From the NCBI GenBank assembly GCA_013285655.1, contig JABDHI010000012.1, positions 1 to 55,356 of the forward strand: DNA of 55,356 nt, written 5' to 3'. Of this stretch, positions 23,001 to 29,245 are shown piece after piece. Within the stretch, counting starts at the first letter, position 1. The number at the start of each line of letters is the position of its first letter. The DNA is from Bacteroidota bacterium (GTDB taxonomy: Bacteria > Bacteroidota > Bacteroidia > JABEUT01). The notes under the pieces are model-generated. The model saw only the letters and a program-made list of their open reading frames with translations, had not been told where the DNA came from and did not search any database. The translations under genes and the position numbers were made by a program.

Positions 23001-23343
23001 TGTATACGAGCAAAAAGATCCATTACTTATTTATAAGTTCGAGTCGTTCGAATTATTTAAGGCTATGGTAGTAAGGATGAACAAGAGCATTGCTTCATTC
23101 TTAATGAAGAGTGCCGTATTTGTTCAGAACCCGGAGCAGATAAAAGAAGCTGAGGTTTTGGAACACCAGGAAGTGGAATATGAAACCAGCCGTTCGGGTG
23201 GAGAAGCTAATGCACAACAACAAGGCAGTGGTGCACCCGCTCCTAAGCCGCAACAACCCGCCAAGGCAGAGAAACGTATTGGTCGTAATGACCCATGCCC
23301 TTGTGGTAGTGGAAAAAAATACAAAAACTGTCACGGAAAGTAA
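20035..23343 (+). CDS. secA: Preprotein translocase ATPase SecA
   Basis: 1102 residues, longer than the E. coli protein because of insertions usual in Bacteroidota SecA. It drives protein export through SecYEG. Motifs: Walker A in MATGEGKTL (residues ~193-200), [31 protein letters not shown], the Walker B DEVDS (~303), the [12 protein letters not shown] helicase region, [13 protein letters not shown], and [19 protein letters not shown]. The C-terminus has a Gln/Pro/Ala linker and the zinc-binding SEC-C motif [13 protein letters not shown]. The last codons and stop (TGTCACGGAAAGTAA) form the left end of the integrated element; the right end keeps an equivalent TGTCACGGAAAATAA, so insertion swapped the final Lys codon but left the protein intact. 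Confidence 0.98.
23328..23343 (+). repeat. Left attachment site (attL) in the secA 3' end
   Basis: CTGTCACGGAAAGTAA, the last codons and stop of secA. The same 16 bases with one change (A for G) lie at 29230-29245. The recombinase gene begins ~200 bases inside this end. Confidence 0.8.
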
Positions 23344-23375
23344 CCGCCAAACTTATTTGGTATCATTTTATATAC

Positions 23376-23411
23376 AAAACCCCTATCAAGTTTAAACCTG
23401 ATAGGGGTTTT
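23376..23411 (+). terminator. Terminator now serving secA, inside the element
   Basis: Perfect 13-bp stem AAAACCCCTATCA / TGATAGGGGTTTT with a 10-base loop, 32 bases after the secA stop. It lies inside the element, so the insertion supplied secA with a replacement terminator. Confidence 0.88.
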
Positions 23412-23466
23412 ATCATTCTGACACCTCTTTTTGTATAGTGTATTCATACTGTTTTCTACCGTATTA

Positions 23467-23487
23467 TTTGTACCTCCGTTGTATCTT
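23467..23487 (+). repeat. Left 21-bp subterminal repeat (probable integrase arm site)
   Basis: A 21-base unit beginning TTTGTACCTCCGTTG and ending TATCTT. It recurs at 29148-29168 with one change (C to T). Part-copies follow it: GTTGTATCTTG (23499-23509) and TTTGTACCTTT (23510-23520). Confidence 0.65.
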
Positions 23488-23490
23488 TAC

Positions 23491-23521
23491 TTGAGGCAGT
23501 TGTATCTTGTTTGTACCTTTA
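23491..23521 (+). promoter_or_regulatory. Putative integrase promoter overlapping arm-like repeats
   Basis: TTG at 23491-23493, a 20-base spacer, then TACCTTTA (7 of 8 to TAnnTTTG) at 23514-23521, 21 bases before the integrase ATG at 23543. It overlaps the arm-like part-repeats, so integrase binding could repress its own gene (inference). Confidence 0.45.
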
Positions 23522-23542
23522 GGCAAGAAATACAAACTGAAA

Positions 23543-24679
23543 ATGATAAAAGTAAAGCTAAGAAACAAGGTAATTTTAGGGGGCAAGAAAAGTTTATACC
23601 TTGACTTCTACCCACCAATTTTACACCCTGATACACAAAAAAATACCCGTAGGGAAGTATTAGGCCTATACATATACGATAAGGCTAAAACACCACTACA
23701 AAAGAATCATAACAATGAAACCTTGTCCCTTGCTGAAAACATTAGGGCAAAAAGACAGATTGAAATTCAAAGTGGCCAATACGGATTTCTATCAACTCAA
23801 AAATACAATGGCGATTTTTTAGATTACTTTCAAGAATTAATTGAAAAGAGAAATAAGAATAGCCGAGGAGCTTGGCAATGTGCATTAGTTTATCTTAAAG
23901 AATTTACAGGAGGGAAAATACGCTTTTCCGACATTAACGTGAAATTTTGCAATGACTTTAAAACATATATTTTAAAGGCTCACCGATTAAGAAGCCGTAA
24001 ATTTTTAATATCACAAAATACTGCACAGTCATATTTTAATAGGTTAAAGGCTGCATTAAAACAAGCCTACAAGGAAGGATTAATAAAAACTGATATTAGT
24101 ATTCAGGTTGAACGTATTAAAGATGCTGAAACTGAAAGAAAATTTGTAACGATTGAAGAATTAAATAAACTAATCCGTACAGAATGCGGATTACCTTTAT
24201 TAAAACAGGCTGCTTTATTTTCAGCACTTACTGGATTAAGATTCTCGGATATTCAAAAATTACAATGGAAAGAGGTACGAAAAAATAAAGGCGCAAATGG
24301 TAAAACAAACTACACATTACATTTTACACAAAAGAAAACTAAAGGTGTTGAGGTATTACCAATATCACAACAGGCTTACGAATTACTAGGTGTAGAAGGT
24401 CAACAGGATGAGAAAGCTTTTGAAGGACTTCAATACTCAGCATTTGTCAATTTTCACTTGAAGCGTTGGATACTGGAGGCAGGGATAACTAAAAACATAA
24501 CCTTTCACTGTTTTAGACATACCTATGCCACCTTACAACTAAGTGCGGGGACTGACCTTTATACAGTAAGCAAAATGCTAGGTCACAGGGACATTAAGAC
24601 TACACAGATATATGCCAAAGTAATGGATAAAGCAAAACGAGAGGCTTCGGAAAGGATAGTGTTGGATTTTTCACAATAA
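23543..24679 (+). CDS. Site-specific tyrosine recombinase (integrase) of the element
   Basis: I choose the ATG at 23543 (MIKVKLRNKV); the frame extends to a TTG at 23507, which would overlap the promoter. This gives 378 residues. The order is an N-terminal arm-DNA-binding domain (~1-85, KSLYLDFYPPIL), a SAM-like core-binding domain (~95-195, YLKEFTGGKIRFSDI), and a catalytic domain. The catalytic residues are visible: Arg in SALTGLRFSDI, His-x-x-Arg in HCFRHTYAT, His in LGHRDIKTT and the nucleophile Tyr in QIYAKVM. It is the enzyme that integrated this element at the secA 3' end. It is distinct in sequence from the housekeeping Xer recombinase at 37335-38210. Confidence 0.95.
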   Translation: MIKVKLRNKVILGGKKSLYLDFYPPILHPDTQKNTRREVLGLYIYDKAKTPLQKNHNNETLSLAENIRAKRQIEIQSGQYGFLSTQKYNGDFLDYFQELIEKRNKNSRGAWQCALVYLKEFTGGKIRFSDINVKFCNDFKTYILKAHRLRSRKFLISQNTAQSYFNRLKAALKQAYKEGLIKTDISIQVERIKDAETERKFVTIEELNKLIRTECGLPLLKQAALFSALTGLRFSDIQKLQWKEVRKNKGANGKTNYTLHFTQKKTKGVEVLPISQQAYELLGVEGQQDEKAFEGLQYSAFVNFHLKRWILEAGITKNITFHCFRHTYATLQLSAGTDLYTVSKMLGHRDIKTTQIYAKVMDKAKREASERIVLDFSQ

Positions 24680-24711
24680 AAATATTTTGATACCATAGGA
24701 CAAATATTAAA

Positions 24712-24738
24712 TAAACAGTTTTAAGTCAAAACTGTTTA
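24712..24738 (+). terminator. Perfect inverted repeat after the integrase gene
   Basis: 11-bp arms TAAACAGTTTT / AAAACTGTTTA around AAGTC, 32 bases after the integrase stop. It could act as an intrinsic terminator (A+T-rich stem) or as an operator for the chimeric HTH-containing gene downstream. Confidence 0.55.
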
Positions 24739-24749
24739 TCTCGGAACAC

Positions 24750-24780
24750 TTGTTTTTACCATAAAAGCAGTATAGTTTTG
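24750..24780 (+). promoter_or_regulatory. Promoter of the HsdS-ATPase-HNH operon
   Basis: TTG at 24750-24752, a 20-base spacer, TAGTTTTG at 24773-24780 (matches TAnnTTTG), 45 bases before the TTG start at 24826. Confidence 0.6.
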
Positions 24781-24825
24781 CGATGTCCTTTAACCAATAG
24801 TAAATTTCTGTGAAGATGGTATCAA

Positions 24826-26307
24826 TTGGAAAAATTTGTGGTTACATCCTTATCGCTGGATGAATTTAGGGTTATTATTGAAGATTGCTTAAATAATATT
24901 CTCAAAGGGAGTAATTTTAACAGTTCTTTTTCTCAATTTGAACCTCCTGATAAACTCCTAACTGTTAAGGAAGCGGCAAGTTTTCTATCTATAACAGTAA
25001 TTGTAAGACCCAATCAGTTCGCTTATAATCCATCGCGTATAAATGTGGGCTCAATTGATTATTTACGAACTGATTTTGAAGTGGCAATAAGCCCTCTATA
25101 CATAGTATTTGAGTGCAAAAACAATTTAAGGAATGATTATTTATTGCGTTACTTGAAGAGCCCAATAGGAAATGACCAAATCAGAAATAAAACAAGAGGG
25201 GCAGTAAGAGAGAATCTTAGCTATAATAGTTTATTAGAAATTAATATACCAATTCCTTCAATTCAGGAACAAGGAAAAATTGCTAAACTTCTTACAAAGA
25301 TTGAGGAAATTATAACGAAAAGGGAAGAAAGTATTGGATTGTTGGATGAAATACTGATCAGTAGATTTAATAGGATGTTTGGTGACCCAATTAGAAATCA
25401 GAAGGGATTTAATAAAATGCAACTAGGTAATTTGGGGGATTGGAAAAGTGGGGGAACTCCTTCAAGAAGCAATGAGGAATATTTTACCGGTGATATACCT
25501 TGGTTGACTTCAGGAGAGTTACAAGATATATACATTAATGAAAGCAAGGAGAAAATAACTTTTGAGGCTGTTAAAAATTCTGGTGCAAAATTAATTGAAG
25601 AGGGAAGTCTATTACTAGGTATGTATGATACTGCCGCATTAAAGTCTTCAATTACTAAAGGTAAGGTTACTTGTAATCAAGCTATTGCTTATGCTAAATT
25701 GAATAGAAAGCTATGCAATACTATTTTTATCTACTTCTTAATTCAAATTGGAAAGGAGTATTTTAAAAGGCAACAAAGGGGTGCTCGTCAACAGAACATG
25801 AATATTTCCATGATAAAAAACATAGAAGTAATTCAACCACCCATTGAATTACAGGATGAATTTGGTGAAATTGTGAAGAAGGTAATAGAAATTAAGAATT
25901 CTCATTCTGCGAACATATACGAGATTAGAAAGCTTTATTCTGCAGTATCATCGTTAGTATTTAATGGTAGTATAGATTTGGGTAATATTCATATTGAGAA
26001 CGTAATTCCTAAGGCAATTGGTGGAACTAATAGTGAGCAGAATATTAAGATTAGATCTGAAAATACTAAGATAAATAATAGTCTTAACGATATTTTGAAC
26101 AATGTAGTTATAAAATATTTCAAAAATAAAGCATTTAGTTATGAGGAATTAGCGGAAAAAATACAAGCTCATTTGGAAGAGGAGGAATATCAATATGATA
26201 AAATACGACTTCATTTGTTTGCTTCTTTAAGAGGATTAGGAAATATTAAACTAGGGCAGTTCTATAATGAAGAGAAAAAAATAATTCAGTTGCAAGTTAT
26301 TAAATGA
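24826..26307 (+). CDS. Chimera: excisionase-like HTH N-terminus fused to truncated type I restriction specificity subunit (HsdS)
   Basis: 493 residues from a TTG; an in-frame stop at 24811 excludes anything longer. Residues 1-58 look like the start of a MerR/excisionase-type helix-turn-helix protein (LSLDEFRVIIEDCL, then LLTVKEAASFLSIT), but the second half of that domain is missing. From residue ~59 the sequence becomes HsdS: the end of the first target-recognition domain (RPNQFAYNPSRINVGSIDY, IVFECKNNLRNDYLLRYL, NIPIPSIQEQGKIAKLL), a spacer helix (~150-185), a full second recognition domain (~190-370, MFGDPIRNQKGF, GGTPSRSNEEYF, NIEVIQPPIELQ), and a ~115-residue C-terminal extension. So half of the first recognition domain is lost. 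No hsdM or hsdR is nearby. It overlaps the ATPase gene by 4 bases. Confidence 0.85.
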   Translation: MEKFVVTSLSLDEFRVIIEDCLNNILKGSNFNSSFSQFEPPDKLLTVKEAASFLSITVIVRPNQFAYNPSRINVGSIDYLRTDFEVAISPLYIVFECKNNLRNDYLLRYLKSPIGNDQIRNKTRGAVRENLSYNSLLEINIPIPSIQEQGKIAKLLTKIEEIITKREESIGLLDEILISRFNRMFGDPIRNQKGFNKMQLGNLGDWKSGGTPSRSNEEYFTGDIPWLTSGELQDIYINESKEKITFEAVKNSGAKLIEEGSLLLGMYDTAALKSSITKGKVTCNQAIAYAKLNRKLCNTIFIYFLIQIGKEYFKRQQRGARQQNMNISMIKNIEVIQPPIELQDEFGEIVKKVIEIKNSHSANIYEIRKLYSAVSSLVFNGSIDLGNIHIENVIPKAIGGTNSEQNIKIRSENTKINNSLNDILNNVVIKYFKNKAFSYEELAEKIQAHLEEEEYQYDKIRLHLFASLRGLGNIKLGQFYNEEKKIIQLQVIK

Positions 26308-28037
26308 AACTTATTAGACTTAAAATATTTGAAGCTTTCAGGAGTTTACCCGAAAATTTTGAGATTCGTTTTCTTTCCACCAAACAAGAAAATAGAATTC
26401 ATGAGTTTATGCCTTATTGCCTTGTTGGGAGGAATGGTAGTGGAAAGTCAAATATTCTGGAAGTGCTAGCTGCTATATTTTATCACTTGGAATGCATGAA
26501 TATAAAGTTACCTACAAGTTTTATTTATGATAAAGAGGATAACCCACATGGGTTTTCAAGTGAGAATGCTATAATTGATGCCTATGAATTGGAATATTAT
26601 TTTCCTTTAAAATTGGAGGATATTAAAGCAACATGGACTGAAATGGGTAATAAAAAATTCAGTAATGCGAATGCCCACATACATGTGGAAAAAGAAAAAG
26701 GAAAGTCGCCCATAATCACATGGCTTAATAGGAAAAGCTTTGATCCAACTGGCGAACCCTTGCTTACAACTTTAGAAGCAAAGAAATTTTTTCCAGACTA
26801 TGTTTTGGGCTATTCATCGGGAGAGAATGAGATTTTGAGTTTGCCATTTTTCAAGATGAGATTTATTCATTATGATGAATATGAAGAAGCCGTATTAGGA
26901 GAACTTCCATATACTCAACCAGCAGGTAGGTTGATTTATTTTGATAATAGTTTTAGTCAGGCGGTATTTCTTACAAATTATTTAATGCAAGAATCCAAAG
27001 TACTAGACCCTATTTATAAGACTTTGGGTATAAAAGGTATTTTCCAATTTCGCATTATTATTCGTATAAACGAAGGAATACAATCAGGGAAAAATAGGCA
27101 ATTAGTAGATGAACGAATAGGCTCCCCCAATAAAGAAAAAGAGGAAAAAAACTTTGATCTTACATCACGCCTAACGGCTTTGATACAGATTTTAAAAAAC
27201 TGTGCTACTTGTTGGGAGAATGATGAGGGAACATTGCTTTTGGATTATAACATCAATGAAGAAACAAAAAAAGCATTCCGAACAAGTTTTGATAATGAAC
27301 CGATAAAGTTATTTCAATCATTTCAAATTCTGCTTACTCTAAATTTATTTGATGTAAAAATTGAACTCAAAAAGGAACTATATGAAAGTGAAAGTTTGTA
27401 TGTAAATGAAACAGTTCCTATTTTACCTTCGGATAGAAGAATTATGAGATTTAAGGACTTAATGATTGATACTGGAACTTATACAGAGGAAATTTATAAT
27501 AAGTCTCTTTCTGATGGAGAACATCAGTTTCTGCATTCTATGGGGATATGCTTGCTTTTTAAGAACTCAAATTCATTATTCCTTTTAGACGAACCAGAAA
27601 CACATTTTAATCCTGATTGGCGTTCATTATTTATTAGTACTCTAAGAGATTGTCTGGTGCAGAAGACTGATAAATTCCTTTCGGATATTTTAATAACATC
27701 CCATTCGCCATTTATTGTTTCAGATTGTGACAGAAACAATGTTATTGTATTTAAAAAATCTAAGGGGGTCAATAGAAAAGTTAATATTTCAAGACCTGAT
27801 TTTAACACTTTTGGTGCATCTGTTAGTATAATAACCCATAATCTTTTCCATAAAGAAGAAACTATTTCAAGGATTGCAAATAAGCGATTAAAGGATGTAC
27901 TGAAAAGATATAAGAATGGAAAAATTAACCTACAACAGGCAATTTTATTTGCAAATCAATTAGGAGATTCTATTGAAAAATTAATTACTATTAATGAATT
28001 GAAGCGCACTAATATAAGTAGCCGAAAAAAGAAGTAA
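26304..28037 (+). CDS. SMC/ABC-like AAA ATPase, restriction-system-associated / Septu PtuA-like
   Basis: 577 residues. An N-terminal MKLIRLKIFEAFRSLPENFEI leads to the Walker A GRNGSGKS (residues 42-49). The ABC-type signature is LSDGEHQF (~401), Walker B with catalytic Glu is LFLLDEPETHFNP (~426-438), and the switch His is in ITSHSPFIV (~464). The middle ~300 residues are an inserted helical/regulatory region. The C-terminus is Lys-rich (SSRKKK). No TOPRIM nuclease domain is seen, unlike OLD proteins. Such ATPases occur beside type I restriction genes and, paired with HNH nucleases, in Septu-type defence. It is translationally coupled to the HsdS chimera (ATGA) and is followed directly by the HNH gene. 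Confidence 0.85.
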   Translation: MKLIRLKIFEAFRSLPENFEIRFLSTKQENRIHEFMPYCLVGRNGSGKSNILEVLAAIFYHLECMNIKLPTSFIYDKEDNPHGFSSENAIIDAYELEYYFPLKLEDIKATWTEMGNKKFSNANAHIHVEKEKGKSPIITWLNRKSFDPTGEPLLTTLEAKKFFPDYVLGYSSGENEILSLPFFKMRFIHYDEYEEAVLGELPYTQPAGRLIYFDNSFSQAVFLTNYLMQESKVLDPIYKTLGIKGIFQFRIIIRINEGIQSGKNRQLVDERIGSPNKEKEEKNFDLTSRLTALIQILKNCATCWENDEGTLLLDYNINEETKKAFRTSFDNEPIKLFQSFQILLTLNLFDVKIELKKELYESESLYVNETVPILPSDRRIMRFKDLMIDTGTYTEEIYNKSLSDGEHQFLHSMGICLLFKNSNSLFLLDEPETHFNPDWRSLFISTLRDCLVQKTDKFLSDILITSHSPFIVSDCDRNNVIVFKKSKGVNRKVNISRPDFNTFGASVSIITHNLFHKEETISRIANKRLKDVLKRYKNGKINLQQAILFANQLGDSIEKLITINELKRTNISSRKKK

Positions 28038-29054
28038 ATGCTATATACTTATAAACATATCAATCATGATTTTGAAAAAATCCAGAAATACATAGAGCAT
28101 CTAGTATTAAATGTCTGGTGTAAACCTAATGGAAACTTTTTGATTAATAAACTTCATCCTGATTTTGTACCAATTGTAAATGGTGTAAACCCCCGGTATT
28201 TGAAAAACCCTATCAAGAATGTATATAGAATTTGTAATGGACTTTTGCCTGCTCAGCTATTAAAACTTAGAAATGGATTTTTGGCAAATAATTCAATTGA
28301 AGAGCTTTGTATGGGAATGGGAACACCATTGCTTTATTCTGAAATATATACTATTCGTCCAGCGCTGAAGAGGCAACTTGAATTGTTTTTTAAAAACCTT
28401 TATTCCAAAGTTCCCCAAATAATTGCATTTAAGAAAGTTTGTGGAGAGATTGATGATTATTACGATAAACTTGTGGATACAAATGAAAAGTGTCCTTTTT
28501 GTGGGATCAATGATATTTTGACACCTAAGCATTCAAAGAGAGATGCCCTTGACCACTATTTACCTAAGGATATTTACCCATTTAATTCAGTTAACCCTAA
28601 TAACTTAGCTCCGATTTGTAAGACATGTAATAGTTCATATAAAGGAACAAATAGTCCGATAAGAGATAATATTGGAGTGAGAAGGAAAGCATTCTACCCT
28701 TTTGCGAAAAAAGCAGTTAAACTAGAATTTAAAGCTAAATTTAACTGTACGAGTATCCTTAAAATGAAAAAGGAAGATGTTGAATTAAAAATCACAAACA
28801 GTAGATACAAGGAACAAATTGAAACATGGGATAGCTTATTTGGAATAAAAGAAAGGTATGCTATTAAATTGAGTAGTAAAGATGCGAGAGGGTGGCTTAA
28901 TACTATGCTAATTGATTTTAAGATTAACCCCAAAACAAAGTATAAATCGTTTGCCAAGAAGATGGAATATTACGAAAATAACCCGATGGAAGATAATAAT
29001 TTTCTAAGAGTTACATATTTTAATGCTTGTAAACAAATGGGGGTATTTAATTGA
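28038..29054 (+). CDS. HNH endonuclease, Septu PtuB-like effector
   Basis: 338 residues, starting on the base after the ATPase stop. The HNH core is at residues ~150-205: a first zinc pair in CPFCG (~152), the catalytic-type DHYLPKDIYP, an Asn in PNNLAPICKTCNSS (second zinc pair and CN). The rest is helical with basic patches and no other recognised domain. HNH proteins paired with an ABC-like ATPase act as nucleases released or activated by the ATPase in Septu-like systems, so this is probably the effector that cuts nucleic acid. The target is unknown. Being last in the operon and tightly spaced, it should be made in ratio with the ATPase. Confidence 0.85.
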   Translation: MLYTYKHINHDFEKIQKYIEHLVLNVWCKPNGNFLINKLHPDFVPIVNGVNPRYLKNPIKNVYRICNGLLPAQLLKLRNGFLANNSIEELCMGMGTPLLYSEIYTIRPALKRQLELFFKNLYSKVPQIIAFKKVCGEIDDYYDKLVDTNEKCPFCGINDILTPKHSKRDALDHYLPKDIYPFNSVNPNNLAPICKTCNSSYKGTNSPIRDNIGVRRKAFYPFAKKAVKLEFKAKFNCTSILKMKKEDVELKITNSRYKEQIETWDSLFGIKERYAIKLSSKDARGWLNTMLIDFKINPKTKYKSFAKKMEYYENNPMEDNNFLRVTYFNACKQMGVFN

Positions 29055-29147
29055 ATATTCAGTGCATTTTATAAGGATTGCATTAGGTTTACTATAAGAC
29101 ACTACCAGTAATTGTAAATTTTATCAAAAACGGGCATTTTAGTTACT

Positions 29148-29168
29148 TTTGTACCTCTGTTGTATCTT
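29148..29168 (+). repeat. Right 21-bp subterminal repeat (probable integrase arm site)
   Basis: TTTGTACCTCTGTTG then TATCTT, identical to 23467-23487 at 20 of 21 bases and in the same orientation, 61 bases inside attR. Confidence 0.65.
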
Positions 29169-29229
29169 GAGCAATGAATAAGTAGCTAAAACCTATGATG
29201 GATAAGGGATTTGACAAAAAAGTTACAAT

Positions 29230-29245
29230 CTGTCACGGAAAATAA
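29230..29245 (+). repeat. Right attachment site (attR), relic of the original secA 3' end
   Basis: CTGTCACGGAAAATAA. It reads as the last secA codons (Cys-His-Gly-Lys-stop) out of context, 15/16 identical to attL. The surrounding 29055-29350 stretch otherwise has only the arm-like repeat and the terminator that follows. Confidence 0.8.

What the first reader, a model, noticed from the sequence alone, without database searches (positions are those of the whole stretch)
24826..25100. In-frame chimera from a deletion: excisionase-like HTH start joined to mid-HsdS
Residues 1-58 (to FLSIT) match an excisionase/MerR-type HTH start, and the sequence switches near base 24997 to the end of an HsdS recognition domain (RPNQFAYNPSRINVG). 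Both parts are incomplete at the joint. The simplest explanation is a deletion that removed the rest of the HTH gene and probably hsdM/hsdR plus the hsdS start, yet kept the frame. The fused protein keeps a TTG start and the upstream promoter, so an orphan half-specific HsdS may still be made.
Basis: partly seen in the sequence, partly recalled or inferred. Interest (0 to 1): 0.7.

Follow-up and report, generated by a model that had tools for sequence, protein, structure and literature searches.

The report
Deletion-fused remnant of a restriction operon
A small mobile defence island inserted at the end of the secA gene has lost its restriction and methylation genes in one internal deletion that happened to fuse the start of a DNA-binding (excisionase-type) protein in frame to a broken DNA-recognition subunit, leaving two partner nuclease genes intact behind it; it looks like an ordinary decayed system rather than a new kind of protein.

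Summary
ORF 24826-26307 (493 aa) is a chimera. Residues 1-58 are the truncated start of an excisionase-type HTH protein. From residue 59 it is HsdS, 50-59% identical over TRD1 to intact HsdS proteins whose own residue 59 or 60 aligns there. The joint is 24999/25000. It replaced 58 native residues (about a third of TRD1) with 58 foreign ones; the rest of TRD1, all of TRD2, and a C-terminal extension remain. The ORF belongs to the conserved operon hsdR-hsdM-hsdS-AAA(TIGR04435)-HNH; hsdM lies upstream of hsdS in all 68 relatives with enough flank, but is absent here. One relative (L075) shows the undeleted layout int-HTH-rep-like-hsdR-hsdM-hsdS-AAA-HNH, implying a deletion of about 5-7 kb. The whole is a 5.9 kb integrative element at the 3' end of secA, with core att repeats and arm sites matching a second element in a same-genus genome. 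No homologue has the fusion; no hsdM or hsdR was found in the 69%-complete MAG. The intact AAA/HNH pair is the likeliest part to work; the chimera is probably inert without HsdM. Interest is modest.

The parts
23328..23343 (+). left core attachment repeat, CTGTCACGGAAAGTAA, the 3' end of secA
   Evidence: direct repeat with 29230-29245, 15/16 identical; same-genus G006 has the equivalent pair CTGCCACGGTAAGTAA / TTGCCACGGTAAGTAA
23468..23518 (+). left integrase arm-type sites: two pairs of TTGTAYCT, each pair 11 nt apart
   Evidence: 23468/23479 and 23500/23511; G006 has the same two-pair layout, first site also 140 nt from the core
23507..24679 (+). tyrosine recombinase (integrase)
   Evidence: Phage_int_SAM_5 5.8e-23, Phage_integrase 6.6e-19; 70% identical to the integrase at the same secA site in G006
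24750..24780 (+). Bacteroidetes-type promoter-like site TTG-N20-TAGTTTTG
   Evidence: only plus-strand match in the element, 6 in 55 kb; consensus from general knowledge
24826..24999 (+). truncated excisionase-type HTH gene start (residues 1-58 of the chimera)
   Evidence: profile of seven HTH relatives 22.7 bits against a best of 7.0 in 2000 shuffles
24999..25000 (+). joint V58|I59
   Evidence: HTH similarity ends and HsdS similarity begins here
25000..26307 (+). hsdS without its first 58 codons: rest of TRD1, central conserved region, TRD2, conserved C-terminal extension
   Evidence: PADLOC Specificity_I 2.8e-58; Methylase_S TRD2 4.4e-24; C-terminal extension 34.6 bits
26304..28037 (+). restriction system-associated AAA ATPase (TIGR04435), intact, start overlaps the hsdS stop by 4 nt
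   Evidence: 647 bits, cut-off 300; Walker A, LSDGE and LFLLDEPE present
28038..29054 (+). HNH nuclease-like partner (PtuB/PDC-M01B-like), intact
   Evidence: PDC-M01B 1.2e-16; HNH weakly, 18.2 bits against cut-off 21.4; CxxC...DH...CxxC core
29149..29167 (+). right integrase arm-type pair TTGTACCT-N3-TTGTATCT
   Evidence: the same single right-hand pair in G006
29230..29245 (+). right core attachment repeat, CTGTCACGGAAAATAA

Best explanation
A 5.9 kb integrative element at the 3' end of secA originally carried int, an excisionase-type HTH gene, probably a rep-like gene, and the five-gene defence operon hsdR-hsdM-hsdS-AAA-HNH. One internal deletion (about 5 to 7 kb) ran from codon 58 of the HTH gene to codon 58 of hsdS. 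By inference from relatives, 0-1 nt of microhomology was available, which points to illegitimate end joining. The result is an in-frame HTH'-'HsdS protein of 493 aa. Its TRD1 has lost its first third, so it can no longer be a normal two-half recognition subunit, and no HsdM or HsdR remains at the locus or was found in the MAG; restriction and modification by this system are almost certainly lost (inferred). The AAA and HNH genes are intact and the AAA start still overlaps the hsdS stop by 4 nt. I infer that the fusion ORF now mainly carries transcription and translation from the HTH promoter into the AAA/HNH pair, which may act alone or be a relic on its way out. The HTH protein, a presumed excisionase, is also destroyed, so excision is probably impaired and the element may be stranded (inferred).
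For: Sharp change of relatives at residue 58/59 from both sides. Conserved operon, with hsdM upstream in 68/68 informative loci. Undeleted layout in L075, and in L071 with a different middle gene. Both halves lie between matching att and arm sites of one element, so the joint is not two unrelated contigs. No hsdR; the only N6_Mtase hit in the MAG is a PrmC/HemK-type protein. AAA and HNH intact. hsdS-AAA overlap in 57 of 80 relatives.
Against: No close relative has both sides of the joint in the same sequence, so the deleted DNA, its length and the microhomology are inferred from relatives at about 60% identity or less. A frame-keeping deletion has a 1 in 3 chance, so it says little about selection. 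A 12-nt repeat (CAGTAATTGTAA, 24995 and 29106) spans the joint; only about 1% of points in the element have such a repeat, and this is unexplained. The MAG is 69% complete, so hsdM elsewhere is not excluded.
Confidence: 0.85

Rival explanations
1. Assembly artefact: the joint does not exist in any cell and the MAG collapsed an intact element.
For: The window is from a 121-contig, 68.7%-complete MAG-like assembly. Reads are not available.
Against: No exact repeat longer than 12 nt touches the joint, and relatives suggest 0-1 nt shared between the two sides, so a k-mer assembler had no overlap to collapse on. Both halves lie inside one element with proper ends. The fusion is in frame and free of stops.
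Confidence: 0.08
2. Functional orphan: the chimera, or a shorter product from an internal start such as M184, supplies a TRD2-only half-S that dimerises and works with an HsdM encoded elsewhere, giving a palindromic specificity.
For: An N-terminally deleted EcoDXXI S subunit does this (PMC3874165). TRD2 and both conserved regions are intact here.
Against: No HsdM in the 69% of the genome held. Such homodimers are reported only for Type IC (PMC3874165). The damaged TRD1 is still attached.
Confidence: 0.07
3. An evolved HTH-HsdS fusion in which the HTH start has a use of its own, such as regulation or docking.
For: The replaced and replacing segments are both 58 residues; the ORF is open and full length.
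Against: The HTH is cut before the rest of its fold (relatives continue for about 50 more residues). No homologue has the fusion. Equal length needs no explanation beyond chance.
Confidence: 0.03

Closest known systems
Type I restriction-modification operon with TIGR04435 AAA ATPase and HNH partner (G103, L035-L114)
   Same: hsdS with conserved C-terminal extension, AAA (647 bits) and HNH genes, same order and strand, 4-nt overlap between hsdS and AAA as in many relatives
   Different: hsdR, hsdM and the first 58 codons of hsdS are missing; an HTH start takes their place
Septu (PtuA/PtuB)
   Same: ATPase plus HNH pair; AAA matches a PADLOC PtuA model at 1.8e-55
   Different: AAA is far below the NCBIfam PtuA cut-off (44 of 500 bits); belongs to a Type I operon
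Half or truncated HsdS (EcoR124I delta50, EcoDXXI delta-N, NgoAV; PMC3874165)
   Same: one TRD damaged or lost, the other intact
   Different: those work with their own HsdM; none is present here, and the lost part is replaced by foreign sequence
Integrative element at secA in a same-genus genome (G006, L125)
   Same: 70% identical integrase, same core repeat and arm-site layout, HTH gene
   Different: intact HTH; cargo is a DNA methylase and a neighbouring gene that may be its nuclease (read from the sequence only), not this operon

Membership tests
Type I R-M system | hsdM methyltransferase at the locus | tested here: not met
   none in the element; only a PrmC/HemK-type protein in the MAG
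Type I R-M system | hsdR translocase/nuclease at the locus | tested here: not met
   none in the element; no match in the MAG to the G103 HsdR (MAG 69% complete)
Type I R-M system | HsdS with two complete TRDs | tested here: not met
   TRD1 lacks its first 58 residues; TRD2 complete
TIGR04435 AAA (restriction system-associated) | score over the curated cut-off, full length | tested here: met
   647 bits against 300, 1-565 of 568
hsdR-hsdM-hsdS-AAA-HNH operon | all five genes in order | tested here: not met
   three of five remain, one of them broken
hsdR-hsdM-hsdS-AAA-HNH operon | HsdS C-terminal extension | tested here: met
   34.6 bits with a profile that matches none of the other HsdS loci L127-L155
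Septu | PtuA over the curated cut-off | tested here: not met
   44.2 of 500 bits
Excisionase/MerR-type HTH protein | complete helix-turn-helix and wing | tested here: not met
   cut after FLSITV; relatives continue PTLYSKV...RLYFS; Pfam finds nothing
Integrative element with tyrosine recombinase | integrase plus direct repeats at both ends | tested here: met
Integrative element with tyrosine recombinase | empty site in a close relative | tested here: inconclusive
   G001 and G008 end secA with nearly the same bases and no integrase follows, but their downstream genes differ from the window's

The most novel reading that the evidence does not exclude
The fused HsdS is kept because its C-terminal extension, which a profile found only in HsdS proteins next to this AAA/HNH pair, docks the AAA/HNH effector to DNA; after loss of HsdR and HsdM the remnant would then be a three-gene, methylation-independent defence system guided by one TRD.
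Probability: 0.06. Interest if true: 0.7.

Novelty: new member of a known kind. Interest (0 to 1): 0.3.

Why it matters
It is a clear snapshot of how a mobile Type I operon can decay: restriction and modification go together in one step, which avoids the danger of losing only modification, while the AAA/HNH pair stays intact. It also points to a secA-targeting element family in this genus and draws attention to an uncharacterised HsdS C-terminal extension tied to the TIGR04435/HNH pair. If the pair still defends the cell, it would show that the pair can act without its R-M partner.

Tried and rejected
Site-specific recombination by the neighbouring integrase as the cause of the joint: the joint does not resemble the att core (only AGTAA-type matches). 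Homologous deletion between direct repeats: the expected HTH continuation (PT) and the expected HsdS residues before the joint (YK) share 0-1 nt. The 12-nt repeat at 29106 is not needed to explain the joint, since both sides of the joint look like native sequence; left unexplained. A second hsdS or shuffling partner in the MAG: none. IMG/VR scans for the fusion, the AAA and the joint DNA gave nothing. Paper searches for the TIGR04435/HNH operon and for secA as an integration site found nothing relevant.

Full report
What is there. ORF 24826-26307 runs 493 codons from a TTG. It overlaps the next gene by 4 nt; that gene is a TIGR04435 'restriction system-associated AAA ATPase' (647 bits, cut-off 300), followed directly by an HNH-type partner. 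Upstream, 146 nt away, is a tyrosine recombinase.

The two parents of the chimera. Residues 1-58 match excisionase-type HTH proteins of related elements: a profile of seven such proteins gives 22.7 bits, against a maximum of 7.0 in 2000 shuffles. The similarity reaches residue 58 (FLSITV; relatives have FLSLSVPT and continue through the rest of the fold). Similarity to HsdS begins at residue 59. Curvibacter (L092), Ramlibacter (L088) and a Verrucomicrobia MAG (L041) align from their own residue 59 or 60 at 59%, 54% and 50% identity. In these, the residue before is K, not V. The joint is therefore 24999/25000. The lost and the gained segments are both 58 residues, which I take to be chance.

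What was lost. In 80 loci from other genomes with the same AAA, the usual order is hsdR-hsdM-hsdS-AAA-HNH, and hsdM precedes hsdS in all 68 with enough flank (64 within 250 nt, 4 further away). The window has neither hsdR nor hsdM. L075 shows the layout expected before deletion: int, a 144-nt gap, HTH of 97 aa, a 545-aa rep-like gene (named from its place and look only), hsdR, hsdM, hsdS, AAA, HNH, all on one strand; L071 is similar with another middle gene. Taking L075 as a guide, the equivalent deleted span is about 6.6 kb; without the middle gene it would be about 5 kb. This is inference from relatives, not a direct comparison.

The element. The 3' end of secA (23328-23343) is repeated at 29230-29245 with 15 of 16 bases identical. 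Inside each end lie TTGTAYCT pairs 11 nt apart, two pairs at the left and one at the right. A same-genus genome (G006, L125) has a 70% identical integrase at the same place with the same core repeat, the same two-plus-one arm layout and the same 140-nt distance from the core to the first arm site, but different cargo. Both halves of the chimera lie inside these ends, so a join of unrelated contigs is very unlikely; a collapse within the element is unlikely because no repeat longer than 12 nt touches the joint.

Function. Shown: TRD2, the conserved regions, the C-terminal extension, the AAA motifs and the HNH core are intact in sequence. Shown: no hsdR match in the MAG, and the only N6_Mtase hit is a PrmC/HemK-type protein, with the caveat of 69% completeness. 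Inferred: restriction and modification by this operon are lost; the HTH protein cannot bind DNA normally; the element's excision is probably impaired. An N-terminally deleted S subunit can work as a TRD2 homodimer in EcoDXXI (PMC3874165), but only with HsdM. A promoter-like site of the Bacteroidetes type lies at 24750-24780 (consensus from general knowledge), and the hsdS-AAA overlap, found in 57 of 80 relatives, suggests that an in-frame fusion keeps translation flowing into AAA. That would give the fusion a trivial reason to stay open; a recent event would do so as well.

Is the fusion found elsewhere? No: 395 genomes of the class searched with the whole ORF and with the HTH part, plasmids and phages and IMG/VR gave only one parent at a time. 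This fits a single event in one lineage.

Verdict. It is a decayed Type I operon of a known kind on a mobile element. The open points are the reads, the fate of the AAA/HNH pair, and whether the HsdS extension has a role of its own.

Noticed in passing
window 23328-29245 and L125 (G006): Integrative elements with related integrases target the 3' end of secA in this genus, with a 16-nt core repeat and TTGTAYCT arm sites in pairs 11 nt apart; G006 carries a DNA methylase and neighbouring genes as cargo.
   Followed up: partly
window 26040-26307; last ~110 residues of HsdS in L033 and L035-L114: HsdS proteins next to the TIGR04435 AAA/HNH pair share a C-terminal extension that a profile does not find in other HsdS loci (L127-L155); it may connect HsdS to the AAA/HNH pair.
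   Followed up: partly
window 24995-25006 and 29106-29117: A 12-nt exact repeat (CAGTAATTGTAA) spans the joint and recurs near the right end of the element; about 1% of points in the element have such a repeat.
   Followed up: partly
window 24713-24737: A 10-bp inverted repeat (AAACAGTTTT-N5-AAAACTGTTT) between int and the HTH start, just upstream of the promoter-like site; possibly an operator or the end of the int transcript.
   Followed up: no
L043, L047, L086, L110: hsdM (in L043 also AAA) is split into two or more ORFs in several relatives, so parts of this operon may often be broken or frameshifted, or these are sequencing errors.
   Followed up: no
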